Below, piece after piece: positions 1 through 59,693 of a stretch of DNA of 64,000 bases. How positions within the stretch are numbered: position 1 is the first letter of the stretch; each line of letters begins with the position of its first letter. Below the pieces are notes generated by a model, which was given only the letters and a program-made list of their open reading frames with translations, had not been told where the DNA came from and did not search any database. The DNA comes from Coffea arabica. Its lineage: Eukaryota > Streptophyta > Magnoliopsida > Gentianales > Rubiaceae. A program made the position numbers and the translations under genes. The stretch spans positions 39,518,287 to 39,582,286 of the forward strand of contig NC_092326.1 in assembly GCF_036785885.1 (NCBI RefSeq), in the 5' to 3' direction.

Positions 1-1698
1 ATGATAAACGTACATCCTTTAGATAAACCATAAGTACTTAGAAAATCAAACACTGAGTATAACTAGGAACTGGGTAAATCACTGACCAAATTTTATTCGA
101 GTATTGCAAAGAATATCTGGATTTGGAGTGCGGCCACATCGGTACTCCTCAATAATATAAGAGACCTAAACATGAAACGAACACAGAAAAAGTCACAATA
201 AAGGAGCAACCAACAGAAATCTATTGTTTAAGTAGGTTAAAAATCCTATAGGAGTAAAAAATTCTAGTTTTGAGAAAAATTTAAATCATACAAGAATAAA
301 ATAAGTAGCCAATAAAAAATAAACAAATAATGGTAAGCAATTCAATTAGCCACAAACTGCACATACCACATTATTCCAGTATTCATCTGTCAAATGGACA
401 ACTTCCAGAGGAACATCAACCTGTAGATCCAATTTAGGTGCAGTTTTTTCAGGAATGGTAGGATATTAAGAACTACATGCCTACAAAAAACTAATAAGTA
501 TAATGTGCCCATGAAAGATGGAACATAATGACACATATTTCAGTTAGGACTTGGTTATGCAATAGCAAAAGTACAAAACAAAGACGAAAACCTGCAGTAA
601 ACTATTTTTTGTTGATATTAAGTTCTTAGGACATTTACTCAATTGTAAAATGTACTAAGAACTAAAATGATAGAAAAGAAGGAAGTATTACCTGAGCACA
701 GACAGCTTTAGCATACTTCAAATCATCTTCCCAAGGACATTCAGACCAAAAGTTTTCGAATTCTTCCTAAAAGGAAATGGAATCAAGTCAGATGGCAGCT
801 TAGTGTGCGCAAACCCAATTTGCTACATAAAGAGTAGGGAACTGCAATTGGGTAGTGAAAGTGTAAAATATTATGGTATGGTAGGGAACCTTTAACAGGA
901 AATTTGTTCATAAGCATTACATGACTCTTATGTATGAATGACTGTAGCAGATCTTCTTCACTTGAAGCATTGCAAGATAATGAATCTCTTAACTAAAGCT
1001 TAACCCGAAATGTCATACTAGTAGCTCACTCAAGAATTTGACGAAATGCATAACAACTTTCTTCTCCACAGAATTAATACATCCCAAATTCTACAGAGAA
1101 TGTTCAAATGATAATCAGTTCTCTAGACTGTTGAGAATTTCGCCCAAAACTCATTACACACAACACGGAAAAGCTATAAAAAAAAAAACCTGAATTCGCA
1201 GCAAAAGGGAACCATCAATATATTAGTAAAAAAGAAAAAAAAAACAGAGAGAGAGTAGTATAAAAAAGAAAAAAAATGCCCAACGTGAAACCAAATTTTG
1301 AGGTAGAAAGCAGTGCAAGAATGGCCAGCGAGATGGAGGAGGCGAAGGGCAACGCTGCTGTCGACTCCACCACTGAGGAGAACGGCGATTTTGAGAGGCT
1401 TTTTGTGCGGCATAGAGCAAGAAAGATAACATTTGGGGTCGATGAAGATGCTTTTGTTGGGGGTGTTAATCTCCTTCTGAACGATATTAACATCACTGCT
1501 ATTAGCAACGGTGCAAAGGGGTGCTAGAAGGGAAGCAGCAGATGGTTTGGCGGTGGTTGATAGCAAATGACGAAAAGGGAATTTGGGCATGGGGTTTGAG
1601 AAAGTGAAGAAGAGGCTATTGGAGAGACTTCTTTGGATTGAGGATTGGAGAGTGAAGGAGATTGCAGAACCCATTGAGGCTGCAGTAATTCTTAACAT
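1..1698 (-). CDS. tRNA-specific 2-thiouridylase, MnmA/MTU1 family, organelle-targeted (3' part outside window)
   Basis: Family role: adds sulfur to C2 of the wobble uridine of Lys/Glu/Gln tRNAs, in plants presumably in mitochondria and/or plastids. Four exons are visible: 1285-1698, 692-766, 367-420 and 87-165, all with GT/AG junctions and consistent phases; the last ends in phase 1 at the window edge, so the C-terminal part is missing. Exon 1 gives 138 residues. Roughly the first 95 are Ser/Arg/Leu-rich and look like a transit peptide, followed by the PP-loop ATPase motif SGGVDSS at 109-115. Exon 3 carries EYWNNV; exon 4 carries GRTPNPDILCNTRIKF, where the Cys matches catalytic Cys102 of E. 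coli MnmA. A second in-frame ATG (1674) is 8 codons downstream and could be the start. The exon-1 donor (CAC|GTTGGG) is a weak match and is placed by homology. Confidence 0.9.
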
Positions 1699-2116
1699 TA
1701 TTGTTTATTGCATGTAGTGAATACTGATGCTGGAGATGGATGGATGGAGCGTCGAACTAAGTACTAGCTTTTACGCCGGGAAGAGAGTCGGGGAAGGATA
1801 ATCGCCCGACCGAACACATACATACTCGCATCAAGACTGAATGCTGAACTAAACTAAAACTCTTCGATACTTAAATTATTGATTCGACTTGATAAGAGTT
1901 TGTTTAAATTAATTTAATTCAAATTAATTAATCATATTTTTTTTTATGTTTGATAATTTTTAAATTCAATAAAAAATTTCTTCAACTTGGATTCAGCAAA
2001 AAAAAAAAAGTCAAACAAAATTTAAAATTAATTAAAATAATCAAATAAATTTGAGCGCTGAAATATTCAATTCGATTGGCCTCATTCATACATCTACTCT
2101 CAACTATTATTACTTA

Positions 2117-2433
2117 GGGTTAATGCCACTTTGTCCCCCCAAACTTTGAACGATTACCCATTTCAGTCCCTAAACTTAAAAATGAGACACTTAAGTACCT
2201 AAACTTATAAATACCTCCCACTTAAGGAAAATTGTTAACAAATCCTGAATGCCGTTGGTGGTCGAAGTGTCCCATGTTATAAGGGTTTAGGGATTTAAGT
2301 GTCCCATTTTGTAAGTTTAGAAATTTAAGTGGGAGGTATTTATAAGTTCAGGGATTTAAGTGTTCCATTTTGAAGTTTAGGGACTGAAGTGGGTAATCGT
2401 CTAAAGTTTTGAGGGACAAAGTGAAATTAACCC
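2117..2433. mobile_element. Mutator-like MITE, 317 bp, long terminal inverted repeats, 9-bp TSD
   Basis: The first and last roughly 108 bp are inverted copies of each other, so the element is almost entirely foldback. It starts GGGTTAATGCCACTTTGTCC and ends with the near-complement. Identical 9-bp direct repeats TATTACTTA flank it at 2108-2116 and 2434-2442, which is diagnostic of Mutator-superfamily insertion. It has no coding capacity. Its ends resemble those of the 4.87-kb MULE at 32316-37189 (GGGTTAATCGCACTTTATCC), so that family is the likely source of transposase. Confidence 0.92.
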
Positions 2434-13699: not shown

Positions 13700-16600
13700 T
13701 TAAAGCATGATTTCTTTACCAAAAACCCAGCTAAAGGGAACAGATGATGATGCCTGCTTCGCCCTTGCCTGGGCTCTCTCCTCCAATTTTCTAAACCTTG
13801 GTGCCAGCCCGCATACATAATCTTGAGCTTTACGCCCCTCACTGGAAAGGCCTGTCAATTTCTCCACTTTCCATCTTTCAACCAGAAACTCCAAAATATC
13901 TGCATAGTCCTTGGCAGTGTAGACTCCAAGGCGCTGTGCTACAGCAGAGAAGTGTTCAAAGAGGTTGTCATCCCTGCCATCATACATCAGGTGTGCAGGC
14001 ATTGAGATTTTTTTCCTCATCATGTCTGCTAGGGCCACCATAGTGCCATCTGGGTCAATCTCAAATAGCTTCTCAACGATCTTGGTATATGCAGTTTCAT
14101 GGCGCTTCTCATCTGCAGCAATTGTCCCACATATTTGTGCCAGTTTCAGGTCGCCGAATTCCTTGGCAAGCCTGGCAGTGTTCCCATGGGAAATGAAAGT
14201 TGCCCGCTCCTGGAACGAGGTGTAAATGAAACCAAGATAGGGGTTGTTTTCTGTGCGAGGGTCCTAAATTCAAAGATGGGATACAACGGTCAATAGAGTA
14301 TTCAACTATAAAAGAGCACCACACATAGAATACTGAGTACATGACAACATAACCAAAGCTATATACATCAATGCAATTAAAGAAGCAGCAGGGCCATCAC
14401 ATCATTCAGTATAAGCATATGCCTGTACTAAACTGGAACAAAATGCATGCCTCAAACCCTACAGAGGCTTGCATTGGAGCTCCAATAGGGAGTTAGTCTC
14501 CATACTCCATAGTTGTAATGAGTGTAGAAATGCAAAAGTAATGCAAAAGTAAAACAAGCAAGATCTTACCATCCCAGAACCCATCAGGTACTGGATAGTC
14601 TTTTCAATTTGCTTCATATCCACCCTTCCAGAAAGAAAGAGATATTTGTTGAGAAGGTCGCCATGCCTATTCTCTTCAGCAGTCCATGCCCTAGTCCAAA
14701 CTGCCCAAGAAGTAGGACTGGCACCAGTTTCATCTCGAACTCCATCAAGAGTGTTAAGCATAGTCTGGTAAGTTGGAAGTGCTTCCTCGGTAATCATATC
14801 TCCAACCAACACGATGAAGTAGTCATCAGGAATTTCCTTGGATCTTTCCCTCAGTTCCTTTACCTGTTCCTCAAATCCTTCAGAGGCAGGGTCTGGGAGA
14901 AAATCACTGGGCTGCCATGATTTCTCAACATCCTTTAGTAGCACCAAAATGTTCTTCTCAGCCCAACCATCCAGAGATTTGAAAATCTCGCGCTTTTCTG
15001 GTGGCATTGAATGAGTCACTTGAACATGCACCTCTCTTGGTGGGGTGAAAGGCTTCTTCACAGTCTTAACATCCCTATATCCAAATGGCATTTGAGTATA
15101 AAGCATTCTTTTACAAAACTTAAACCATAGAAGCAACAAAACTTAAACGAAATCAAGCAAAAAAAATCTCCATTCTTTCCAGCCTTGAAAGATCAGATAT
15201 AAACTGTACATAGAACTCAATAACTGGTTGAGAGTTCAGAAAGCGAAAATGAAGCAGAAAGTCTGAATCTTGGGATGGAGAGATGGGAAGATGATGCAGG
15301 GTAACAAGAAGCATCACTCAATTGGCAAGCTTTTACACAGGTATACGATCTTTAGAAGGCCAATAATAGTGTACTCCAAACCAACATCACAGATACAGGT
15401 CAAATATACCGCTTGCAGAAAACTAGGAGCCAGTAACGACCAAGTTGCAAGTTTCAAGGATAACCCAAATATCTTTTGTCGGTATTATTCTTAATTTTAT
15501 CTTCGTGGGACCAACAAGATGTTTAGCAAAAAAAAAAAAAAAAAAGTTGTAAGCAGAAAACCGACAAGAAAAATATTAAAAGTTTCGTTAGTTTCAGTCA
15601 GAGAAGAAACAGGACAATGTAGACCAACAACCATAACAGATACAAGCATAAACTAAAAGTCAGAGCTACATTTAGAAAAATCATCAAGTTAGGAACCCTG
15701 CAATGAAGAAACAACAAACAAGTGAAAATCATTGCTATAACCCTAAAATACATCAAAAAAAAGTGACAGAATGATAACATAAAGATTATATAATCGCAAC
15801 AGCAAAGATTATATACCAGGCACAAATGGAAGGCCCAAACCAAATGAGAGCAAGAAAAACAACCATTAATCAGAATAACACAAAATTGATAACTTAAATC
15901 TCATATGAAAATAATACAAGTACAAGAATTACTTCACTTTGAATTTTCTCTCAGAAGCTAGTACCTTTACATGAGGACCACCACTGCAGAGACTGAGTTA
16001 AGAATTACTTCATTTTGCAACTCAAAGGAGCTAGTGGGGTTATATTTTCAGGACCACTGTTTCAAGTATTGACAAGGACTAACGTTTTGTTGTGAATAAC
16101 ACGAAAACATATGTTTAGAAAAGAACAAAAACTTCAAAGACTGCATGGTCAAACCTAATTTTGATTCACTAATCGTACAACTAAGGTTGGATCAACATTC
16201 ATAGCATTGAAATACATAATTTGTATTAGCACCTTCCTGAAGAAATCTATTGACATAGAGACCAGCACAGACAACACATGCAGATTTGAAAAATATAAAT
16301 AGACATTGAATTAAACTAATACGGATAAATAAATTAATTGAAACAAGAGAAAGCGAAAAAAATTATTAAAAAAATCTGACAAAGATAGAGGGGCAACCAT
16401 GCATGCATTGGTACAAGTTGAATACATACACCAACGGAGACATGAAAATACACAAAATAAATTTAAAAAAAAAAAAAAAACAAATGGGAGAGAGAGGTCT
16501 TCGAGGTTTCAATCAGATTGTGAAGTAATTAGACAAAATCAAATACAAGACGTTTAAAACGGGTTGCTATACAAGCCCAGATGGAAAAATATGATAAAGA

Positions 16601-31251: not shown

Positions 31252-31653
31252 GGGATAAATTCAGAAACCTCCCTTGAGATTTTTGACAATTTTACTATCC
31301 TCCTTTAAGATTTTAAATATTTCACTTACCGCCATTGTCAGTCATTTGGGATCCAATGCTTACATCACTAATGGCTAAATAATTTTATTACCCTTAACAT
31401 TTAGGATAATTATACATATATGTGCAGGAAAAGAGTTAAAATTTTGCAAACTACATTAACCATAATTTGAATTGTAAAAAGTTAATTAATTTGCCATCTA
31501 AACATAGAGTCAATATTAGGTACATCTTTTTTAATTTTTATATACTTGACAAATAAAAGAAATTAGATGTAATACAGCTGATAAATTAAAGGATTTAGAC
31601 ATGAAAAGTAATTAAACAATTTACCAACTAAATTAACCGTAATTTGAAATTTT

Positions 31654-31707
<54 letters not shown>

Positions 31708-32136
31708 GGCATCTAAAAGAGGATCCAATACTAGGCATCATTTTTCCAATTTATGCACTTTATAAATAAAAGAAATAAAAAGCAAAGAGATTTTAATTGA
31801 GATAATTTTTCTTATAATTGTGATGATAGCAAGAATCTTAAGGTACGAAAAAAAATGCTTTGTTAAATTTTGGAAGTTGTTATTTTTTGTCAGGGATAAT
31901 GGACATTTTTTGGTGACCATGTATAGTAATGGCCTCCTAAGTAAATTAATAAGTTAGATCAAATATTTAATCTAACTAATATAATAGTTGAGGGGTACTT
32001 TTGGCATAAAACAAATCTTTTCACATCTGATTTTTTTTTTGTTTTTTTTATTGGACTAAATTGTTACAAAAAAATTGGTTCCAAGGGAGGCTAGTGATAT
32101 TTTTAGAACCTTAGGGGAGGTTTTAGAAATTATCCC
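31252..32136. mobile_element. MULE-derived MITE, 885 bp (family A copy 2)
   Basis: Inverted ends (GGGATAAATTCAGAAACCTC; the right end is complementary) flanked by perfect 9-bp duplications TTAAATAAA at 31243-31251 and 32137-32145. Inside is a roughly 47-bp AT run (31656-31703). No coding capacity. The perfect duplication suggests a more recent insertion than copy 1. Confidence 0.9.
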
Positions 32137-32681
32137 TTAAATAAATTCTCGTAACTCTCACGAGTGGTACTTAGTGGTGGTGACCGGTCACCTCGTTACC
32201 TCACGTCAATAGCACTATTTAATCCATTTGGTCACTCCCATTTTTTCAATCCAAAACATTTTGTAATATTGGATAGAACAACTATGATACTTTCTAAAAC
32301 ATGAGATTTATTTAAGGGTTAATCGCACTTTATCCCCTTCAAATATAGGCCATTTTTCACTTTACCCTCAAACGTTTGCTTTTCCTCAATTTACCCCTTT
32401 CGTTAGCAATTGCACCATTAAAAACTTCAAGATTTCGAAATTGCCATACGAAAAGGGCCGTTGGTTTTACCTGACAAAAAATGTCCCTCAATGGCGTTTG
32501 ATGCTTTTAGCCTATTTTTTCCCTCAAAGAGCCGTTGGTTGGTTTTAGTCGTTGGTTGGGTTCTATAAAAGGTGATATTTTGCAGCCAATTTTTCTCATA
32601 TATTTTAGCAGATTTCAAAGTTCCTAAAATTTCTCTCCAAAGTTCCTAAAATTTCTCTTTGTCAACCAAAAGCATCATAAA

Positions 32682-33130
32682 ATGTCACAAAGTACTTCAA
32701 ATAATGTTGAAAGATCACCCCAAAAAATGTGTGGATGTGGTAAAAAGGCACCATTGTGCACCTCTTGGACACTTGAAAATCCGGAAAAAAAGATTTTACG
32801 GCTGCTCAAATTATAATGTAAGAATTTTTCATTAATATTTGTAAATATTGTCTTTAATTTGGTTCTATACCTGAATAAGTTGGAAAGAGTTTAAACAACT
32901 AAATTTTTTATTTAGAACCGACATGCATGTGGGTACATTCATGGGCAGATCCTGAAGTTTGTAGCAAAACAAAAGAAGTAAGTGCAGTGCTACAATCTAG
33001 ACTGGTGGAGCGAAAGGAGAAACCAATGTACTTGCAAAGGGAGCATGAAAAATTGGCAAATGAGCATGAAAAATTGAAAAGCAGATATAAAGCCTTAGAA
33101 ATAGGGATGTTGCTGCGATATGTTTATTAG
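32682..33130 (+). pseudogene. GRF-type zinc-finger / coiled-coil gene carried by the MULE, frameshifted
   Basis: Starts at ATG 32682 with MCGCGKKAPLCTSWTLENP, the opening of a GRF zinc finger (CxCG...TSWT..NPG..FYGC). Within a run of seven A (about 32788) the frame shifts; the next frame reads RFYGCSNYN, so one base has been lost or gained. An intron (about 32819-32915, GTAAGA...TTTAG) follows, and the second exon again needs a shift between CGYI and WADPEVC to complete the finger. It then continues as a heptad-like coiled coil (QREHEKLANEHEKLKSRYKALE) and stops at 33130, before the membrane anchor often found in this plant family. The GRF finger family binds single-stranded nucleic acid in other proteins; its role in the element is unknown. 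Confidence 0.7.
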
Positions 33131-33326
33131 TCAAATAAGAGGTGTGAAAATGTGGGGGAAGAGGAGGTGTAAGTGATTGTGGCCACAAACGGTAGGGAAA
33201 ATGTGTTGGATGGTCACGTTTAAAGATTTTTTGTGACTTGAAACCTAAAGACCAGTTGGGCGTTGCAGTTAAGCAGAAAGGGGATATGAAAAGTTGAAGG
33301 GATTCCAACTGTAAATGTGAAATGTG

Positions 33327-33927
33327 GGGCTCTTTTATTCAACAACGGGTTTATTTTTATGTTATCCGATAAATAAATTAGAAATTAAGGAAAATGGGCA
33401 CTGTGTAAGTATAATGAATGAAAGTCATAAAGAGTTGGTATTTTATTCAACAACAGGTTTAAATTTATTTTTAAATGACAAGTAACTTTCTATTTAAGGC
33501 ACCCTGGGTACTGTGTGAGTATAATGGACGAAAGGTATAAAGAACTGGTCTTTTATTCAATAACGGGTTTATTTTTATTTTATCCGATAAATAAATTTCT
33601 ATTTAAGGCACCTTGGGTACTATGTTGTTGTAATGGTGGAAAGCCATAAAGAACTTGTTTTTTATTCAACAAAAAGTTAATTTTTATTATATTCGATAAC
33701 TAAATTTTTGTTTAAGAAAAGTGGGCACTCTATTCTTATAATGAATGAAAACTTTGAAAAGTAGGGCTCTTTTATTCAACAACGGGTTTATTTTTATGTT
33801 ATCCGACAAATAAATTAGTATTTGAGGAAAATGGGTACTCTGTAAGTATAATGAACGAAAACCATAAAGAGCTGGTATTTATTCAACAATGGATTTAAAT
33901 TTATTTTATCCGATAAATAAATTTCTA
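33327..33927 (+). repeat. Tandem array, about 109-bp unit, six copies, inside the MULE
   Basis: The phrase TTTTATTCAACAACGGGTTTA and variants recur at about 33331, 33440, 33550, 33659, 33767 and 33875, spaced 108-111 bp. Each unit also carries GATAAATAAATT, GGGTACT(G)TGT and TATAATGAA words. Units differ from one another, and copies 1 and 5 are most alike, hinting at expansion by a higher-order step. Confidence 0.9.
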
Positions 33928-33960
33928 AACCGCCCGCTCCTATTATAGGTGACACTTAAT

Positions 33961-34040
33961 TTTTTACAAATATTCTCTTCATCCTCCGTATATGTCAGCT
34001 TTTTTACAAATATTCTCTTCATCCTCCGTACATGTCAGTT
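33961..34040 (+). repeat. 40-bp tandem duplication
   Basis: Two adjacent copies of a unit starting TTTTTACAAATATTCTCTTC, differing at only a couple of positions, directly after the roughly 109-bp array. Confidence 0.9.
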
Positions 34041-34415
34041 TGCAACGTGTCTGCTTCTTTGCCATATTTTTTACCTTTCCATACCTGTCTTGTATTAGTT
34101 GAATACACTACAGAATTTACCTAGAAATAGAAGTCTATGTCTTACAAGTTGAAAACCAACAGTTACAGCAACAATACATGATGGTCAAAGTTGCTCGATC
34201 TTCATCATGAAGAAAAACACTAGCCATTACATTTATAATTGCTAGCATTATGTATATGTACTCTATTTCAGAACCAAAAGGTAACATAAATCTGTTTTAT
34301 CTACCATAGTTGTAAGCAAATATATATGAAAGAAAATTATATTAAGTTAAAAGCATTTTGCACATCATATTACATCTTAGCATGTGTCTGCATGGCCACC
34401 CAAACAAAGGCCATT

Positions 34416-36301
34416 TTAGTAGAATCTAACCAAAACATATGGGTTTTTGTTGTCTTGCACAAGTCCAGCACATGCATGGACATATGGAATTCCTGTCATA
34501 TCCCACTCATTACATGTGCAAGACCTTTGAATTGCATTAACAGCAAAAGTTCCTACTATACCAGTCATCTCATACACCTCTCTTGTAGACACAAGTGCAT
34601 CAAATTGAGTTACCTGTTTTTTCCTCTCTTCAATTTTTTGACAAATCCTAGGACAAATATGAGACTTCACCTTTTGAATCCAGTGTCTTTTTTCTTGAAA
34701 TCTGCACATTATCTGCCTTCGAATGGCTTCAAACATAGTTAAAATAGGCTCCTCCCTAGCATCCTTAATGTATTGATTGAAACTCTCACATATATTATTA
34801 TCTAAAAGGTCACATTTTGTCATTGGAAAAAATGTGTGTCTACCCCATAGGTTAGCTAGTATGGAACTAAGCCATGCATGTGCTTCTGGGGCTACTAATT
34901 GCAACTCTGTCATTTTGCTTTCATAGTGACTGGATAAATAAACCATGGTTGCCCCCCACATTAAATCTCTTAGGTGCTTATCCTTGAATTTCAGCTTGAA
35001 GTTAGCATACATGTGTCTAACACATAATATATGCTCCATTCCAGGATACTTATTCTCAATGCAATCAATTAATCCCTAACATAAAAACACAAATCACAGC
35101 AATTAGTGACAGGAGCAAGTAAGGAATAAAGGAAAGTAAATCAGATTGTAGTGGTGCTGACCTTTTTGTCTATATGATAGAAATATCCAACCCCTTTCAA
35201 TTGGAGTCCCAATGGCATCGGTAAGACTGTCCAAAAACTACACCAACTATCTTTGCACTCAGACTCAACAAGAGTTATAGCAATTGGAAACATATGGTTA
35301 TTAACATCCCTACCAATTGCAGTCATAAGCTACCCTCCCATGATTCCCTTAAGATGACATGCATCCAGCCCTATTACAGGCCTACATGCATTTACAAAAC
35401 CTTTCTTTTGTGCAAAGAACATCACAAATATTCTCTTGAAGATTGGGCTTTTACAAAGTTGGGGTTGTTCAATTAAAATAAATGCCATTGAACCTGAATT
35501 TCTTTGTAGAAGTGTAGCACAATAGTCTCTTAATCTTACATACTGCTTTTGCACATGACCTTTTCTTAGCTTCCTCTGCATTCTCTTTTGCTATATACAT
35601 TTGAGAGTTTGTACAGTTCAGGTTATGCTTTCTTTTTATGCTCTTCTTGAACCCTCTTACTTTCATATTTGGATGGTCAGCAATCCCCTCTGTAAACATC
35701 CTAGACAACCACCTAGAATTTTGGGTGACAATCTACTTCACCACTATCTCTCTCTACATCATCTATAGGATCACATGCATTATTTAAATCATCCCCATCT
35801 AGGAAAAAATCAAAATCAGAGTCATATTCAACTTCCCTACGACCATCCCTATCACCTTCCTGCGAAGCATCTGAAGCATCACTTTTGGCCTCATCATTTT
35901 GGGGTTGTTCAGCATTAGGATTTAGATTTTATTCACCATCAACCTCAATATTATCCTTTACAACAGTTCCATTAGCATGCATATCTTCTTCATGGATCTC
36001 ACCAACATAAAGTTTTATGATGCTTTGAGTTCTATTTGCCTCAAACATTTATAGAACTATCTGGTCACTGTTTAACAGTTTTAAGACCAACCTGAAGGTC
36101 AAGATTTCTAACCCTATAGTACACTGATGTTTTATGTGAAATTCTAGCGTCTTTAAAAGCATCTCTTAACTAAAAAATTGACATCAAATCAGGGTCAACA
36201 TCATAAAAATTAGCAACTTCTCCCCTCACATATTGTAAATTTGGGACATGGGCAAAATGACCTCTGTAGTGAACCTTTTAAACATAGGTTTTAAAATCCA
36301 T
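34416..36301 (-). pseudogene. MuDR-type transposase, broken
   Basis: Homologous throughout to plant MULE transposases. A 5' part from an ATG at 36301 reads HVPNLQYVRGEVANFYDVDPDL but has at least two in-frame stops; an acidic linker follows. At about 35.56 kb a frameshift separates KENAEEA from VQKQYVRLRDYC. The catalytic core has VIGLDACHLKG (first Asp) and an amber codon (about 35330) where GQL is expected. A short intron (35076-35161) joins HIDKK to GLIDCIENKYPG. The final exon (34416-35075) is open, with the family's NNICESFNQYI (catalytic Glu) and the SWIM finger CTCNEWDMTGIPYVHA, where the third zinc ligand Cys is Tyr. The frame closes at 34416. Lesions are described, not corrected. Confidence 0.9.
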
Positions 36302-37524
36302 TCTTCTGTAATTACACAAAGGCAACTTTTTTAGTGCATGCACAGGTAATACAGAGCAGGCATCTTTTATTGTCCCATAAAAATAAAAAATCATAGTTTG
36401 TCCATCTAACAGGACATATAACCAACCAAAGTAAACAAAGAATTCAGCAAATTAATAATTAAAAAAGACAAAAGTTGATAAAAACCCATCATTTTCATCC
36501 TAACCCGACAATGTAGCATATCTTCAAGGGACCATACCAACAGATGATTCAAACAAATAATTGTCTACACATTAAAGCCCATGCAGCCATTAAAAAAACC
36601 CATACCATTGTTTCTGTGCAATACAATTGATTAAAAATTAGAAATTTCTAAAATCGAGAAAAAATTGCAAAATCGAACCGTAAGGGCTGCCCAAGCTCTC
36701 ATAATCTCCTTTCACAATCCTCAAATTCAATTATGTCATCTGCTAACAACTTCATCGATTGCCCGTTTTTCCATTCAAGATGCCGGTGAATTTTCAAGTT
36801 TTTTAATGGAGGTTTTGCTAAGGATTTGGCCACAAGTGAAGAGAAAGCGACCTGACAATGGCAAAAGGGAAGAGAAAGTGACCTGACAATAACAAAAGGG
36901 AACCTTCTATCTGTTCCCTGATTTTTTTTTTTCCTGTCCCGTGCCAAATGGAGGGAAATTTCCCTCCGTTATTCCAGGGTAATTTTGGAAACTTGCATTT
37001 CATAAACCAGCATATATGGGTATTTTGGGTTGTTCAATATTTTCATAAGGATATTATTGTCTTTTCAATATTCCGTTTATGTCCATTAGAGTTGACAATT
37101 AGTTTTTGGAGTAGACTGAAGAAAAACAAACGTTAGGGGGTAAAGTAAGAAATGACATATACTTAAAGGGGATAAAGTGCGATTAGCCCTTTATTTAATT
37201 ACATCTTATATTTTTAGTAAAATGTTTACCACCCTAAATAGTGAAATATTTGAATTTGGACACTTCCCCTTTTTAATCGAAAACCTAACAAATTAAAAAT
37301 GTGAGTTCGGACAATGATATTTTAGACCTGTATAGGCCAGATTTGAGTTCCAGCATTACTTTTTTCGTATTGATTTAGATTTGGACTTATAAATACCTGA
37401 TTAAATAAAGTGCAATTTATATAGCTCTGCGATACGAGAATATTTTTTCAAATCTCGATCTTAGTATTTTAGAGTAAATTTCATATACACTGACGGTATA
37501 TATATTATTGTCATTGGATCTATA

Positions 37525-45300: not shown

Positions 45301-47437
45301 AAAGTGGTTCGGCTTGGACCAAATTAAGCTCAACGTAATATGTTTAATACTTATACATGTATAAAATAAATAAATAAATTCAGAAGAAATAATTGTGTTT
45401 TTGATAATAATATATTTATCTTAAAGCATTATTGTTTCTATTAAATAATACATAATTCAAAAATTAATAAATATGTATAGTAAGTATATGAATTTAGCAC
45501 TTTTTTACTCGTATATTATATGTAGGCATTTTAAAATCGTACAATATGTATGCTTTTTTTTTTTTTTAAAGAAAATTTAACCTAACCCAATCCCCCTCGA
45601 AACTCATTTTGAAAAGATGGACCAAGACAAGGCTCACGCGTGTGAGCTTTGGATGGGCCGAGTTCATGCTAACAAGTGATTTGTTTTTCCTCTATGCAGT
45701 TTGGGCTTGTCAAAGCCCAACTGAATAAGACCAAATTGTAGGTTTTAATGACAACATATGAGTCGAGCTTAGTTGAACTAGGGGATAAGTGGTTGAATAG
45801 GATGGAGTATGGTAAGATAGATTAATGGTCTGAGGTTTTGGCTCGTTGATTAATTATTCGAGATTATTTTATCATAGCTGACATTTTGGGCTGCATTAGG
45901 CCGGTCGCAGAGAGGCCTCCCTGTACACAAGTGGTCAATCCAGCCCGAAAAAACCGTTAAAGTCAATCTTGGTCCAAAGAGGGAACAACAGAAGTCAACA
46001 AAGGACGTGGTTTGCCACTTTGCCAGTGGGGTCGGACTATGCCTGGTTAAAAAGTATTGAGCTCGAGTCAAGATGGGCTGAACGTGGACTGGAAAAACTA
46101 GTTCGAACCAAGCCCAACACTTTCTGAGTCAACAAAATTTGTCGAAAAATAATTAAATAAAATATTACTTTTACCAGGTCACTTATAAAAAAAAAAAAAA
46201 ACGACTCTTAAAACACGAGCTAACTCAGTGATACAGAAGTGTGCGAGGGCGGGCAGGAGGGTTAAAAAAATAACAACCCTAGATTTCTTATCAAGAGATG
46301 AACCATCTTTTAACTTGTTCATGTCATATAAGTCGTGTCTTGTCAATTATGTTGGTTAGTAGAGATTTTTCAATTTTTCTAGTATTTAAACTAACACTAG
46401 GAATAAATTACTCGATAAGTTACTCAATTAGTGATCGACTGATAGTGTATAAGTAGTGTTAAATTTCTTTGAAAAGCTAAAATAGACCACGAGAAATTTG
46501 GTAAATAGCCTTTCAAGAAATTTGGAATATTCTTACACCTGAAAGTATTAAAATGCTAGTTTTTTTTTTTTTTTTGGAGGACTTGATCCAAGCATATTAA
46601 AGAATATCATCCCCTTCAAAAAATTAAGAAGAAGAAGAAGAAACAGTCTAAGGCACCAATTTACTTCTTATCATCACATACGCAACTTTTTGTCTTCATT
46701 TATGTAATATGTACTTATAGTTGCACATTGAAAAACTCAGAATGCCCATGAATTAGACAAAATGACATTCAAGACTGTGGAGCTTAATCAAAATGACATT
46801 GAACAAGCTTGCAAGCCATTCGATTGAATTTGACTCGTTTGTAGCCCTATGCCACAGTTTAGAGGATAGTTCAAGCCAAAGCAATCCAAGTATTTGGAGA
46901 GCTGGAGATCTTAAAAGCAGTTCTAATTTATGCGATCTATTGAAAGTAAAGGAAACTGAATTACAGGACACCAAACCAGGAAACTCTTTCACGGATACAT
47001 TATATGTTCTACCCTCTATGATTCAGTGCTGCAAAACTGAACTGCCAAATCTCATGCTTCCCTGATTCGTCACAGTGCAAAAACAACAAAGCAGTTGAAC
47101 AGCTCACATGCATCAGGACTCACATACAACAGTGATATTTACAAGCACCGTTTCATGATATTTCCATCTTTCAATCTTCACAAGAAAACTGAGATAACCA
47201 CCCCGTCAACATCTTTTCTTTTCTTCTGGTCAGTGGTCACGAATCCTTCTTCCATCTTCTGGAACGAAACAATCCCCATTGACCAACAATTAGCAACCAT
47301 AAAATCGTCCGAGAATCTTCATTTTTTCAAGAAAAGACTTGATTCAATCTAGACTCTTTTTTTCAAAGCCAATCAAGAATCAATCAGCATCATCAAGATT
47401 AGTCACGGTTTCTTCTGAAGAGGAGGAACAAAAAAGT
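42333..47437. other. Intergenic region between zinc-finger and BLUS1-like genes
   Basis: 5.1 kb of AT-rich DNA with poly-T tracts (for example 45552-45570) and no transposon with clear ends. An ATG-initiated 90-codon frame at 46793-47065 (+) has no recognised homology and overlaps an equally long antisense frame. The segment 47066-47437 is the likely 5' leader and promoter of the kinase gene. Confidence 0.55.
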
Positions 47438-49006
47438 ATGTTTCAGTATCCACTGGACTCTAAAGGTTATCAGATTCTTGATGAAATTGGTCGAGGAGCC
47501 AGTGCAATTGTCTACAAGGCCATCTGTCTTCCCATGAACTCTTCAACTGTGGCTATCAAATCCATTGATCTTGATCAAGCTAAAGCAGATTTTGACAATG
47601 TCAGGCGTGAAGCCAAAATCATGTCACTTCTTTACCATCCTAATATCCTTAAAGCCCATTGCTTTTTCACCGTTGATCGTCGTCTTTGGGTGGTGATGCC
47701 ATTCATGTCTGGCGGTTCTCTTCAGTCCATCATCACCTCTAATTTCCCTGATGGATTACCTGAGCCATGCATTGCTGCGGTTCTTAAAGAAACCCTTTCT
47801 GCTTTATCATATCTTCATGATCAGGGCCATCTCCACAGAGATGTCAAGGCTGGCAATATTTTGATGGACTCAAATGGTTCGGTGAAGCTTGCTGATTTTG
47901 GTGTATCCGCTTCGATTTATGAATCAAGCTCATCTTATGGACCGTTACAAGGTTCTCCTTCATCAAATTTGATGCTGACCGATGTTGCTGGAACCCCTTA
48001 TTGGATGGCACCAGAAGTAATTCACTCACATACGGGTTATAGTTTTAAGGCCGATATATGGTCTTTTGGGATTACTGCATTGGAATTAGCCCATGGAAGG
48101 CCTCCTCTGTCCAATCTTCCTCCTTCGAAATCTTTGCTGATGAAGATTACCAAGCAATTCCGGTTCTCTGATTATGCTAAGTTTCATGAAAGTAAGAAAA
48201 ACAAGTTTTCAAAGTCTTTCAAGGACATGGTGGGACTATGTCTCGATCAAGATCCATCAAGAAGGCCTTCTGCTGATAAATTGTTGAAGCATTCATTTTT
48301 CAGGTACTGCAAAGGTCCCGAATTTTTGGTCAAGAATGTTCTTCATGGTCTGCCCACCGTGGAACAAAGGTTTCGGCAGTCGAAAATTCAGAGACTTCTG
48401 TCCTTGAATAAAACTGAGGAGGAAGATGAGGAAGATTCATTGAGGGAAAATATCAAGCAAAGAAGAATCAGTGGTTGGAACTTTAATGTCGAGGATTTTG
48501 AATTGAACCCTGTTTTTCCAAATGAGAAAGAAGAAGACAGCATTGTAAAACAAGTCCGATTTGGTGGTGAAACTATTATACAAGAGAAGGGAGGGGACAC
48601 GGATGGATCAATTTCAAGTAATTCTCCAGGGCAGACTGTGAGTGTGGCTGGAACTCAGATTTTGTCTGATCAAGTCTCTGAGGTTTCTGATGATTTGGTG
48701 CAAAATGTTGGGAGCACTAGTGAGGCTGAATCTGTGATTAGCGCCAGTGATCAGGGTAGTGTGGATGGCGAAATGATGTTGAGTAGCCTCTTGTTCCTGA
48801 AGAAGAGTTTGGAGGATCAAAGGAATGAGGTGATGACCATGATTGGCTTGATACAGGGGAAAAAGTTCACAGAAATGAGCAGGGAAGAGCAACTGATGCA
48901 AGTGATTGAGAAGATGAAGGTGGAATTGGAGAATGAGAAGAAGAAGAATGCTGCACTGGAATTAGAATTGGAGTTTCTGAAGTTGCAATACAGCAGTGGA
49001 CAGTAA
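47438..49006 (+). CDS. BLUS1: Ste20/GCK-type Ser/Thr kinase, BLUS1-like
   Basis: Intronless 522-aa kinase. Kinase domain (about 11-290): glycine loop [15 protein letters not shown] Lys41, helix-C Glu58, HRDVKAGN (133-140), DFG 153-155, [10 protein letters not shown] 184-193. The sequence tracks Arabidopsis BLUE LIGHT SIGNALING1 (At4g14480) along its whole length, for example KAICxPMNSxxVAIKxIDLDQ and [21 protein letters not shown]. The tail keeps RRISGWNF; its Ser (345 here) aligns with BLUS1 Ser348, the phototropin target that triggers plasma-membrane proton-pump activation in guard cells. The C-terminus is a Glu/Lys-rich coiled coil (about 455-515). The first in-frame ATG is 47438; the frame is open upstream only from non-ATG codons. 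BLUS1 orthology is inferred from tail conservation; GCK paralogues are the alternative. Confidence 0.93.
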
Positions 49007-56512: not shown

Positions 56513-59500
56513 AATTAAGAAGAAGAAAAATTTAATGGATTAATGGAAGCTAAGCTAGCACGGTCGATCAATAATAGCTAGGAGTTTCTTCTCATCCAAA
56601 GTTTGCAGAAGCCCAGTTGGAAGAATGAATGAATTGATTGATTGATATATAAAATTAGCAATTTTCGATTATTAATTTTCAGATATGAAGCAGAAATTAG
56701 TACTCTCTAAAATCCATATATGCCATATATCCTTGTCTTCTTTTCCAAAGGCGAAGAAAGGAGAAGAAATATATTCTACAGTAAAGCAAATTGATCAAAA
56801 CTTTGTCTCCTCTCTTATTGTATGTATGTATTGTATATATGCCCATTGTAAGGCAAGAAGCTGATTGAACAAGAAAAAGGAAGAAAAAAAATATTTAAAA
56901 AGAAGCTGGAGTTCGTACATTCCATATCCACCTTGAAAAACAGATTCCTAGTCCGGGCCCAAACATGGCATACCCCCTGCCTTCTTCTACTATAGACCAG
57001 AACATACGAAAAAAAAAATGAAGCTACGATCAAGTACAAAATAATTTCCCTCATCAGATCGATCATCCATGTAAATTCGTCCTTTCCTACTACTACTACT
57101 ATCACATCAATAATTCCATTCCGATGAGTTTCAGGGCGGCGGCCGGCCAACAAAACAAGAAGCTAGCTAGCAATTACAGCTAACTATAATATATATCCAT
57201 GGTTAGTTGGTTGTATTGTATTGTATGCTGCGATCTTTTCTTGAAAGGAAAACTATAATTATGGTCCATTGTCCAGCAGCTGTTATGGTAATACAATTCT
57301 GAACCAAAAAAGCCCCCCCCCGGGGAGAGGGAGGGAGAGGAGGAAATTAATAGGCAAATATATAGGTGGAGGTACTGCATCAACCATCATGTTTTTGTCT
57401 CAAATTCTTTCGAATCATTGATGAGCTGATTTTGCTCCTATCATCACGAGAAAGTTGAGTTCTTTGGAAAGTTTAGCTCAAAAAATTACAAGTCAAGAGA
57501 TCCAAGAATACTGAAGTGAAAGGACCATATATATATATATATGAAGCGTTTATTTGCTTCAAGCATAGCTCACCTCATCTAATATTAATGAAGAAACGGC
57601 ACCCTAACTAAGGCCTTGTTTAGATTGCATTTTTTCGTAAAAAATTATTGTAGTGATTTGATGTATGTAAAGGAAAAAAAAAAGTAATAAGAAAATGTGA
57701 TCACGGAAACGACGCAATTTTTTGACAAAAAGTGACTGTCCAAACAAGGTCTAAATTTGCATCACTTAATTCATCATCGATTGATCGAAGTAAAAATTAA
57801 AACTAGCTTGCCTAGAACACTGCACTAGTGGCCTCCTCCAAAGCAAAATAAATAAATATATATATATACACAAAAAAAATCATGACATTGAACCCAAAAA
57901 AAAAAAAAATTTGAAATTACCACAGCCACTAGACTTTGGGAGAACCCGTCAAGTAGACAAGTAGGGACCATAGAGCGGCTTTAGAAGTGTATCTGGGATA
58001 GAATTCGTTGGGGCTGTGAATATTGTCACAGTGGGGAGGTGAGTTGAGTGAAAGATATGTGCAAATCAACCAATGAAAAAAGAAGGCAAAGCAAAGACAG
58101 ACGGATTGGTCTCATTCCTGAATATTCACACGCTAACAACAACATCAACAAACAACAGCAACGTGGACTATATTTCTTTCTTTCCTTCTGTTTTATTCTT
58201 CCTGCGATCCTGCTGCGACTAGTCCGATGGGATCCCATCCCATGATTGATAATATACACTATCCCTTCCCGACCACTCGATTTCGACAATACCTTCAAGA
58301 TCCCTTTACTTCAGCACGCCAAACTCTCTTGTCAGTCTCTGCTTGCTTACTATTTTTACCGGATTTTAACAGAGATTTCGTAGGCTGTGTGTCATCACTG
58401 TCTCACGTCATTCATCCTACATCTCCAGCACTAGCTAGTTGTGTCCTTCTCTCTCTCTCTCTCTCTTAAAAAAATTTTTACTTGTATTTTTTTCTTCTTT
58501 CTGGAGTACTTTGCAGTGCAACAGTATGCTAGAAAGTAGTATGATATATTTTCTTGCAGAAAAGTTTCTGCAATGAAAAGTAATGGTTAATTTCTCCCAA
58601 GATCCCCCCGTTAACCATTGTGATTGGCCAAAAGTTGAAAACTGTACGATTGAAACAAGTTTTCATATATACTTCATTTTTTGAACCAGGTGCGAAAACT
58701 GTGTCACAAATTTACCTTGTGTTCAAAATAATACTAGTAGCTTATAACTTTGAGTAGTAAACGTTTCTATAACCTTGTCTTGGATTCAGTTCCTCCTCCT
58801 CCTTCCCCGCTTCTCATATCCCAACCCTCACCTGCTTTGAAAAGAGAAAAAAGAAAAAAAGAAGCTTTTATTTTACAACCTATTGAAAAGGTTGTAAAGT
58901 GAAGGTTAGCAACGAAACTTTGCCTTTCCCAGTTGCCCAGTGTCATATTTTGATGTTTCTAATCAACATCCAAGACGACCAATCCTAAGACCCCAACCTG
59001 AGCTGCATGGACCAGTGATTGCATGCACGAAACATGTAGAGAAAGAGAGACAGAGAGCCATTTCGAGAGTCCGTACGTACCAGTGCAAGTATTCCCTAAG
59101 GTTTGGATCGCTGGGACTTGGAGCATCAGGGTCCACCATCACCTTCATAAACAACAATCAAAAGTTGGTGAAACATGCTCTCATGACGAAAGAATGAAAC
59201 CCTAAAGAAGAAAAAACCATCCATCTGAACTCCGCTTCCTGCCCTAGCTAGGCTGGAATACTCAATATTCAAGAAAAGAGGTATGTTCAAAACAAAAAGG
59301 GAAAACAAAAAACTACTCCTGGGATTTTTCTTGAAGTTTACTATACTTACCAGAGTATAGAAGGTGCGAAGATCGTCACCTCCAATCTCAACCCTAGGCT
59401 GATTCACAACCTGAGAGGGTCGAAACTCACAACCATTGCTCACTTCTCTGCTACCATAGGTCACGCTAAGGCTTAGGGACCTGGTGAACTGGTCCAAAAC

Positions 59501-59551
59501 ATCCCCTATTACTCGTCCAACCACCAGTGGGTCTCCTCCCCCTCTAGGCAT
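53770..59551 (-). CDS. FT: FLOWERING LOCUS T (florigen), PEBP family
   Basis: Mobile floral activator made in leaf phloem; it binds 14-3-3 proteins and the bZIP factor FD at the shoot apex. Four exons: 59351-59551 (201 nt), 59081-59142 (62), 56296-56336 (41), 53770-53993 (224), giving 175 aa; these exon sizes are the FT/TFL1 signature. Tyr85 (not His) and Gln140 (not Asp) mark it as an activator-type FT, not TFL1. 14-3-3 contact residues Arg62, Pro94, Phe101 and Arg130 and the segment-C LYN triad are present. Segment B reads [15 protein letters not shown]: Tyr134, Gly137 and Trp138 are kept, but position 135 is Pro where most FT proteins have Ala. Introns are 208, 2744 and 2302 bp; the large ones hold microsatellites and a MITE. 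The upstream in-frame TTG at 59569 is not used as start; the first ATG is 59551. Confidence 0.98.
56093..56220. repeat. Compound CA/TA/TATG/GA microsatellite in FT intron 3
   Basis: Successive CA, TA, TATATG and a roughly 30-bp GA run lie 75-200 bp inside intron 3 from its donor. On the sense strand the GA run is a CT tract close to the 5' splice site. Confidence 0.95.
56466..56509. repeat. AT dinucleotide microsatellite in FT intron 2
   Basis: About 44 bp of TA repeats, 130 bp upstream (sense strand) of exon 3. Confidence 0.95.
57612..57751. mobile_element. Tourist-like (PIF/Harbinger) MITE, 140 bp, in FT intron 2
   Basis: Inverted ends GGCCTTGTTTAGATTG and the complement of GACCTTGTTTGGACAG, flanked by TAA on both sides (57609-57611 and 57752-57754). 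The 3-bp TWA duplication and GGCCTTGTTTGG-type terminus are those of Tourist elements. Noncoding. Confidence 0.88.
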
Positions 59552-59693
59552 CGTCTTAGTTTGTTTCAACCTCGAAAATGGATACTATTAGACTACCCCA
59601 GGAAGGGGAACAAAGCCTGGTTCTACAAGCTGCTAACAGTAATGGGGAGGGAAGCGGAGGGGTGCTATGTACGTGCTCATGAAAGCCTTTCGC

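What the first reader, a model, noticed from the sequence alone, without database searches (positions are those of the whole stretch)
32316..37189. A two-gene MULE: MuDR transposase plus a convergent GRF zinc-finger/coiled-coil gene
The sequence shows a bounded 4.87-kb element (inverted ends, perfect 9-bp duplications) with a transposase on one strand and, converging on it, a second frame with a GRF finger followed by a coiled coil. This mirrors the mudrA/mudrB layout of maize MuDR, where the second gene helps insertion, yet the second protein here is of a different type. GRF fingers bind single-stranded nucleic acid in other proteins, so a helper role in transposition is a testable inference. 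Many plant genomes carry GRF-coiled-coil 'hypothetical proteins', which may be transposon genes that are annotated as host genes.
Basis: partly seen in the sequence, partly recalled or inferred. Interest (0 to 1): 0.72.

Follow-up and report, generated by a model that had tools for sequence, protein, structure and literature searches.

The report
MULE transposons with resident GRF gene
A dead plant jumping gene carries, facing its transposase, a small zinc-finger gene that proves to be a regular second gene of many related jumping genes in the same genome, so a class of unexplained plant proteins may belong to transposons.

Summary
The 4,874-bp element is real: 82-bp terminal inverted repeats, exact 9-bp target duplications. 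It is a dead Mutator-like element (MULE). Its transposase has five in-frame stops, frame changes and two deletions; its GRF gene is a two-exon gene broken by two frameshifts, a stop and a nested 1,017-bp insertion.

Three sister elements with perfect 9-bp duplications all carry an open GRF gene converging on the transposase. Of the 24 best transposase rows (window copy included), 23 have the GRF exon within 10 kb, all 23 convergent. Of 150 scored GRF hits, 68 lie within 20 kb of a scored MULE transposase, 65 convergent; shifted controls average about 1 per list. A second family has open 135-aa GRF and 952-aa transposase frames inside 147-bp repeats. GRF genes also stand beside FAR1-type transposases.

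So in this genome GRF is a resident gene of several MULE lineages, not a one-off capture. The nine GRF proteins checked end in a hydrophobic segment. Function is inferred; one genome only; no paper on the link found.

The parts
32316..37189 (.). whole MULE, 4,874 bp
   Evidence: TIR + 9-bp TSD; sisters 5,681-5,682 bp with the same ends
32307..32315 (.). left 9-bp target-site duplication TTTATTTAA
37190..37198 (.). right 9-bp target-site duplication TTTATTTAA
32316..32397 (+). left terminal inverted repeat (82 bp)
   Evidence: 68/82 identical to the right one
37108..37189 (-). right terminal inverted repeat (82 bp)
32682..32817 (+). GRF gene exon 1 (N half of the zinc finger); frameshift in the A7 run 32785-32791
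   Evidence: sister copies open
32818..32915 (+). GRF gene intron (GTAAGA...TTTAG)
   Evidence: same junction in three sisters
32916..33104 (+). GRF gene exon 2, first part: C half of the finger (frameshift near 32935) and leucine-heptad helix
33105..34121 (.). 1,017-bp nested insertion with 9-bp TSD TAGAAATAG (33096-33104 / 34122-34130) that interrupts GRF exon 2; absent from the three fetched sisters
33331..33927 (.). 110-bp x 5.5 tandem array inside the nested insertion
34122..34309 (+). GRF gene exon 2, rest: hydrophobic C-terminal segment and stop; one in-frame stop before the hydrophobic segment
   Evidence: against sisters
34419..35075 (-). transposase exon, 219 aa open, with SWIM-like motif (PF04434 15.4 bits, below cut-off)
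35076..35161 (-). transposase intron, 86 nt (inferred from GT/AG and frames)
35162..36301 (-). 5' transposase exon, broken: stops at 36280-36278, 36172-36170, 36067-36065, 35931-35929, 35332-35330, frame changes, and about 449 bp missing near 35720 where the sister encodes PF03108
34436..34438 (.). deletion point: about 1,371 bp present in the sisters is missing here

Best explanation
SHOWN: this is a decayed copy of a two-gene MULE family whose standard cargo is a MuDR-type transposase gene and a convergent GRF gene, both between 82-bp TIRs. Other MULE lineages of the same genome, MuDR-type and FAR1-type, have GRF genes beside their transposases, nearly always convergent. INFERRED: each gene is read from its own TIR, as in maize MuDR. 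The GRF protein (zinc finger, short leucine-heptad helix in this family, hydrophobic C-terminus) is a membrane-tethered binder of single-stranded nucleic acid that serves the element after transcription or excision, most likely by protecting or routing its RNA or DNA intermediates (integration helper like MURB, or silencing escape like VANC). Residency I put at about 0.95, service to the element at about 0.75, the specific mechanism at about 0.3.
For: Three sisters with perfect TSDs and open GRF genes; 23 of 24 best transposase rows and 44 of 71 merged GRF exon-2 loci paired within 10 kb, 44 of 44 convergent, shift control mean 0.30, maximum 4; 34 + 34 of 150 GRF hits paired with two transposase lists, 65 of 68 convergent, control means 0.8-1.1; 4 of 5 probed GRF loci unpaired in the lists have a convergent transposase; second family with both frames open, 5,728 bp, TSD TTATTTATT, 99.8-99.9% identical to another copy in the shared parts; GRF dN below dS in the comparisons that are not saturated (0.104/0.340, 0.126/0.383, 0.283/1.733, 0.034/0.051); hydrophobic C-terminus in nine of nine GRF proteins checked; GRF binds ssDNA in APE2 (PMC6122073, passages).
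Against: No expression or binding data. Many MULEs have no GRF hit: of the 20 MULE loci fetched, four have a scored GRF within 20 kb (coordinates), and 20 of 41 mid-distance transposase rows lack the sister GRF exon within 10 kb. For L046-L052, GRF exon 1 has dN 0.041 above dS 0.029, and L070-L072 is only mildly constrained. L068 shows no TSD. For the FAR1-type pair fetched at both copies the left end was not reached, so one element is not proven there. A membrane anchor fits poorly with a nuclear role in integration. In Abermu MULEs the antisense ORFR may be unimportant for transposition (PMC9168764, passages).
Confidence: 0.62

Rival explanations
1. One-off capture: a host GRF gene was picked up by this element (Pack-MULE style) and has no role in it.
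For: MULEs do capture host genes (PMC6446971 and PMC9168764, passages); the gene here has an intron.
Against: 23 of the 24 best transposase rows have it, all convergent; it recurs in other lineages.
Confidence: 0.03
2. Old capture kept as a passenger: the GRF gene was captured long ago and spreads with the elements, but does nothing for them.
For: Not all MULEs have it; Abermu without ORFR is polymorphic in rice (PMC9168764, passages); one pair shows no constraint in exon 1.
Against: Open frames in several families, fixed orientation, dN below dS in four comparisons.
Confidence: 0.2
3. Silencing escape: the GRF protein is an anti-silencing factor that binds element RNA or small-RNA precursors at a membrane, analogous to VANC in effect but not in sequence.
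For: Hydrophobic C-terminus; GRF finger; VANC precedent (PMC6446971, passages).
Against: No data on RNA binding, location or methylation.
Confidence: 0.3
4. Host GRF genes merely attract MULE insertions nearby.
For: MULEs tend to insert in or near genes (PMC6446971, start of abstract in the listing).
Against: Recurrent spacing, 65 of 68 convergent, GRF inside TIR and TSD in four fetched elements.
Confidence: 0.02

Closest known systems
maize MuDR (mudrA/mudrB)
   Same: TIRs; transposase plus a second gene in opposite orientation (PMC9168764 and PMC8224964, passages)
   Different: the second protein here is a GRF finger with a hydrophobic end; comparison with MURB was not run (no MURB sequence fetched)
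Abermu MULEs with antisense ORFR (PMC9168764)
   Same: second ORF antisense to the transposase, between it and the other TIR in the two-ORF type
   Different: ORFR sequences of distant plants share no detected similarity; the word GRF does not occur in that paper's main text
plant MULE groups with an antisense PMD (PMC6446971, Table 1)
   Same: antisense extra domain in MUDR-type groups
   Different: PMD, not GRF; GRF does not occur in that paper's main text
VANDAL/Hiun with vanB and vanC
   Same: MULE with extra genes (PMC6446971, passages)
   Different: VANC is an anti-silencing protein; no sequence comparison was run; TIRs here are clear
GRF fingers of NEIL3 and APE2
   Same: same zinc-finger class; the only PDB row up to E 10 for the read-through finger is NEIL3 7omk (E 0.25, not significant)
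   Different: no enzyme domain found here

Membership tests
MULE (Mutator superfamily) | terminal inverted repeats | tested here: met
   82 bp, 83%; sisters 82-85 bp, 95-98%
MULE (Mutator superfamily) | 8-11 bp target-site duplication | tested here: met
   9/9 in the window copy and in 4 of 5 fetched elements; none found for L068
MULE (Mutator superfamily) | MULE transposase domain PF10551 | tested here: met
   window copy 43.8 bits read through; sister exon 39.2, L067 74.0 bits
MuDR-type MULE | PF03108 DNA-binding domain and SWIM finger | tested here: met
   PF03108 missing in the window copy (deletion) but 42.9 bits in the sister and 45.3 in L067; SWIM 39.0 bits in L067, 15.4 (below the 19.6 cut-off) in the window copy
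GRF zinc finger PF06839 | profile score over cut-off 25.9 | tested here: met
   window copy read through 20.2, not over it; sister spliced gene 37.9, L067 40.3, L058 32.7, L052 38.7, L069 35.8
mudrB | sequence homology to MURB | not tested
   no MURB sequence was fetched
autonomous element (this copy) | open transposase | tested here: not met
   five stops, frame changes, two deletions
tail-anchored protein | single hydrophobic segment at the very C-terminus | tested here: inconclusive
   15-residue Kyte-Doolittle maxima 1.9-3.2, with 1-13 residues after them, in nine of nine proteins; no location data
coiled coil | heptad helix | tested here: met
   leucines 44, 51, 58, 65 of the window exon-2 peptide; helix 17-74 in a single-sequence fold; sister gene gives only below-cut-off helical matches such as HALZ 19.8 bits; not tested in the other families

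The most novel reading that the evidence does not exclude
GRF genes with a hydrophobic tail are a large modular accessory family of plant MULEs, exchanged between lineages with very different transposases (the GRF of MuDR-type L067 is 45% identical to that of L058, which pairs with a FAR1-type transposase, while it has no significant match to the GRF of L064, the relative of its own transposase). They would form a membrane-tethered nucleic-acid binder used by transposons, and most plant 'GRF-type' hypothetical genes would be transposon genes.
Probability: 0.33. Interest if true: 0.8.

Novelty: new variant of a known kind. Interest (0 to 1): 0.62.

Why it matters
It gives a large set of unexplained GRF zinc-finger genes a home: in this genome at least 68 of 150 scored GRF hits stand beside a MULE transposase, and the lists are capped. 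Gene counts, gene-family expansion claims and trait candidate lists that include 'GRF' genes (such as PMC7729826, passages; PMC10359422, passages) may partly count transposons. It also offers a further kind of MULE accessory gene, beside mudrB, the van genes and PMD, in families with near-identical copies, which suggests recent movement and makes function directly testable.

Tried and rejected
Viral and prokaryote collections: the transposase exon found no relative in viral contigs or genome contigs; a GRF DNA pattern gave 29 viral stretches, 0 of 29 GRF-like by two motifs; the TIR pattern gave 0 in viral contigs. These say nothing about plants.

A protein regex for GRF in the 28 genome loci held then (L030-L057) found none, and the window transposase exon had no tblastn match at 1e-3 in them. 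The regex was too strict: the Pfam search later placed GRF hits inside two of them, L046 and L052 (coordinates).

Papers, ten of ten searches: eight aimed at GRF with MULE or transposon words, one at MULE second genes, one at GRF binding. Four of the eight listed nothing; the other four listed six papers. I read passages of three (PMC11734081, PMC10359422, PMC7729826): none joins GRF to MULEs. I did not open PMC9274236, PMC9743578 and PMC4191409. The library is open-access only. Recalled, from no call: that GRF/At4g04775-like genes are common in plant annotations.

The tail and coil rest on hydropathy, leucine spacing and one single-sequence fold. The last 8 residues of the folded peptide lie in the nested insertion.

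The L046/L052 pair (FAR1-type, GRF on the same strand) showed no inverted repeats and could be a duplicated host locus; it is among the 3 same-strand pairs, and I do not claim it as a transposon.
Full report
OBSERVATION. The window copy runs 32316-37189. The two ends match over 82 ungapped bases at 83%, and TTTATTTAA stands directly outside both. Shuffled ends never exceed 39 of 82 in 2,000 trials. Three GGGNTAA-ended elements with 9/9 duplications exist in the window; 300 shuffled windows gave 6 pairs with 8-9/9 duplications, none with more than 14 of 30 TIR matches. The minus strand holds MULE transposase pieces; only the read-through passes PF10551. The plus strand holds a GRF gene that is not one frame: exon 1 32682-32817, intron 32818-32915, exon 2 from 32916.

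STATE OF THIS COPY. Transposase: five in-frame stops at checked coordinates, several frame changes, about 449 bp missing where the sister encodes the PF03108 DNA-binding domain, and about 1,371 bp missing near 34437. GRF: frameshift in an A7 run, a second near 32935, a 1,017-bp insertion at 33105-34121 flanked by TAGAAATAG, and an in-frame stop beyond it. The 110-bp array lies inside that insertion. It is a relic.

SISTERS. The host genome (1.198 Gb, 131 contigs; the window is C17:39518287-39582286) was searched with the 219-aa transposase exon: 150 scored of 1,851 candidates. Three copies with 89% protein identity were fetched; their DNA matches the window element in pieces of 88.5-93.7%. They are full elements of 5,681-5,682 bp with the same termini, 82-85-bp TIRs at 95-98%, and perfect TSDs ATTAAAATA, TTATGGTAA and TATTATTTA, and are 99.1-99.5% alike. 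All three have the two-exon GRF gene open from ATG to stop, 167 aa, with the splice junction predicted from the broken copy. Spliced, it scores 37.9 bits for PF06839; the 5' transposase exon of L064 has PF03108 and PF10551 over cut-off.

GENOME-WIDE TEST. PF06839 gave 150 scored of 763 candidates, all over cut-off. Against the 150 scored PF10551 hits (of 2,147 candidates), 34 of 150 GRF hits lie within 20 kb, 31 convergent and 3 on the same strand; random placement mean 0.79, maximum 5 in 2,000; local shifts mean 1.12, maximum 6. Against the transposases another 34 of 150 pair, 34 convergent, 31 within 3.5 kb; shift mean 1.09, maximum 6; the union is 68 of 150. With the sister GRF exon 2 as query (81 rows from 302 candidates, 71 merged loci; 13 rows are 100% identical, the query included), 44 of 71 pair within 10 kb, 44 convergent. 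Of the 24 best transposase rows (76-100% identity, window copy included) 23 have it; of the next 41 rows, 21 have it; shift mean 0.30, maximum 4. The lists hold only the best 150, so 68 of 150 is a lower bound. Of five GRF loci unpaired in the lists, four have a convergent L067-like transposase (76-99% identity) in a 1.6-kb probe downstream; the fifth, C6:19046913, does not. These five are five of the six unpaired plus-strand rows among the top 16 (C13:15030818 was not taken), so they are no random sample. A search with the L067 GRF protein gave 150 scored of 619 candidates, eight of them 100% identical (pairing of that list was not counted).

OTHER LINEAGES. L067 is a 5,728-bp element, 147-bp TIRs at 96%, TSD TTATTTATT, with an open 135-aa GRF frame and a convergent open 952-aa transposase frame (PF03108, PF10551, SWIM). 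L068 is 99.8-99.9% identical in the shared parts but shows no TSD. Two of the partners were typed as FAR1-type (PF03101 + PF10551): L057, with a GRF 8.8 kb away, and L056, with a GRF 16.3 kb away, both convergent; the other distant partners were not typed. In one search the convergent distances are 6.7-8.8 kb for 7 pairs and 11.1-16.6 kb for 24. In the pair C6:12229639/C22:53162007 the two copies are identical over the 8.3 kb fetched through and left of the GRF, so the left end was not reached and one element is not shown. Its GRF (L058) is 45% identical to that of L067, while L057, whose open frame has the same length (733 aa) and score as the L058 partner, and the L067 transposase share 22%; L067's transposase is 39% identical to the L064 exon, whose GRF has no blastp match to L067's. 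This hints at exchange of the GRF gene between lineages; it rests on three families and no tree, and slower change of GRF in some lineages is not excluded.

SELECTION AND FORM. L069-L070 dN 0.104, dS 0.340; L069-L072 0.126/0.383; L069-L071 0.283/1.733; L070-L072 0.034/0.051; the other 17 of 21 pairs have dS above 2 or not computable. Against: L046-L052 GRF exon 1 0.041/0.029, exon 2 0.050/0.116, transposase 0.020/0.034. Seven GRF proteins have a 15-residue hydrophobic maximum of 2.6-3.2 with 1-11 residues after it, the sister gene 1.93 with 13 after, L046 2.75 with 2 after. The window exon-2 peptide folds as one helix with leucines at 44, 51, 58, 65.

HOW IT PROBABLY WORKS. Shown: residency, orientation, open frames in several families, near-identical copies. 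Inferred: expression from both TIRs, by analogy with MuDR, whose TIRs are promoters for both genes and whose mudrB is required for integration (PMC8224964, passages). GRF fingers bind ssDNA in APE2 (PMC6122073, passages). A hydrophobic C-terminus suggests a membrane-tethered form, which points away from a purely MURB-like nuclear helper and towards handling of element RNA or silencing escape; I cannot decide between them.

WHAT IS KNOWN. Extra and antisense ORFs in MULEs are known: mudrB, MutB, van genes, PMD (PMC6446971, passages and Table 1), ORFR (PMC9168764, passages). The term GRF does not occur in the main text of either paper. Ten searches of the open-access library turned up no paper that joins GRF and MULEs among those listed and opened. 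A comparative genomics paper lists GRF-type with SWIM among enriched zinc-finger domains next to transposon domains (PMC10359422, passages).

Noticed in passing
window 2117-2433: 317-bp MITE with GGGTTAAT ends, 109-bp TIR at 88% and 9-bp TSD TATTACTTA: a small MULE-like element.
   Followed up: partly
window 31252-32136: 885-bp MULE-like element, about 55-bp TIR at 75%, TSD TTAAATAAA, 179 bp left of the finding; its TSD is the reverse complement of the finding's TSD.
   Followed up: partly
window 33105-34121: Nested 1,017-bp insertion with 9-bp TSD TAGAAATAG, no obvious TIR by eye, holding a 110-bp x 5.5 tandem array.
   Followed up: partly
G000:C6:14110237-14130429: Six transposase hits spaced exactly 3,915 bp apart, a tandem amplification beside a GRF hit at C6:14107238.
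   Followed up: no
G000:C9:8634100-9047553: Five equal-scoring GRF hits clustered within 0.41 Mb.
   Followed up: no
G000:C16:40868144, C15:48975434, C8:47033774 (L046, L052): GRF 2.1-2.3 kb beside a PF10551 gene on the same strand (FAR1-type in L052), no inverted repeats found in the two fetched: possibly a duplicated host locus of transposon origin.
   Followed up: partly
window 1174-1704, 13700-15142, 47303-49006: Host genes around the element: tRNA methyl transferase HUP domain (PF03054), fatty acid desaturase (PF03405), protein kinase (PF00069); an FT-like exon at 59126-59584 is my reading of the sequence, no Pfam hit.
   Followed up: no
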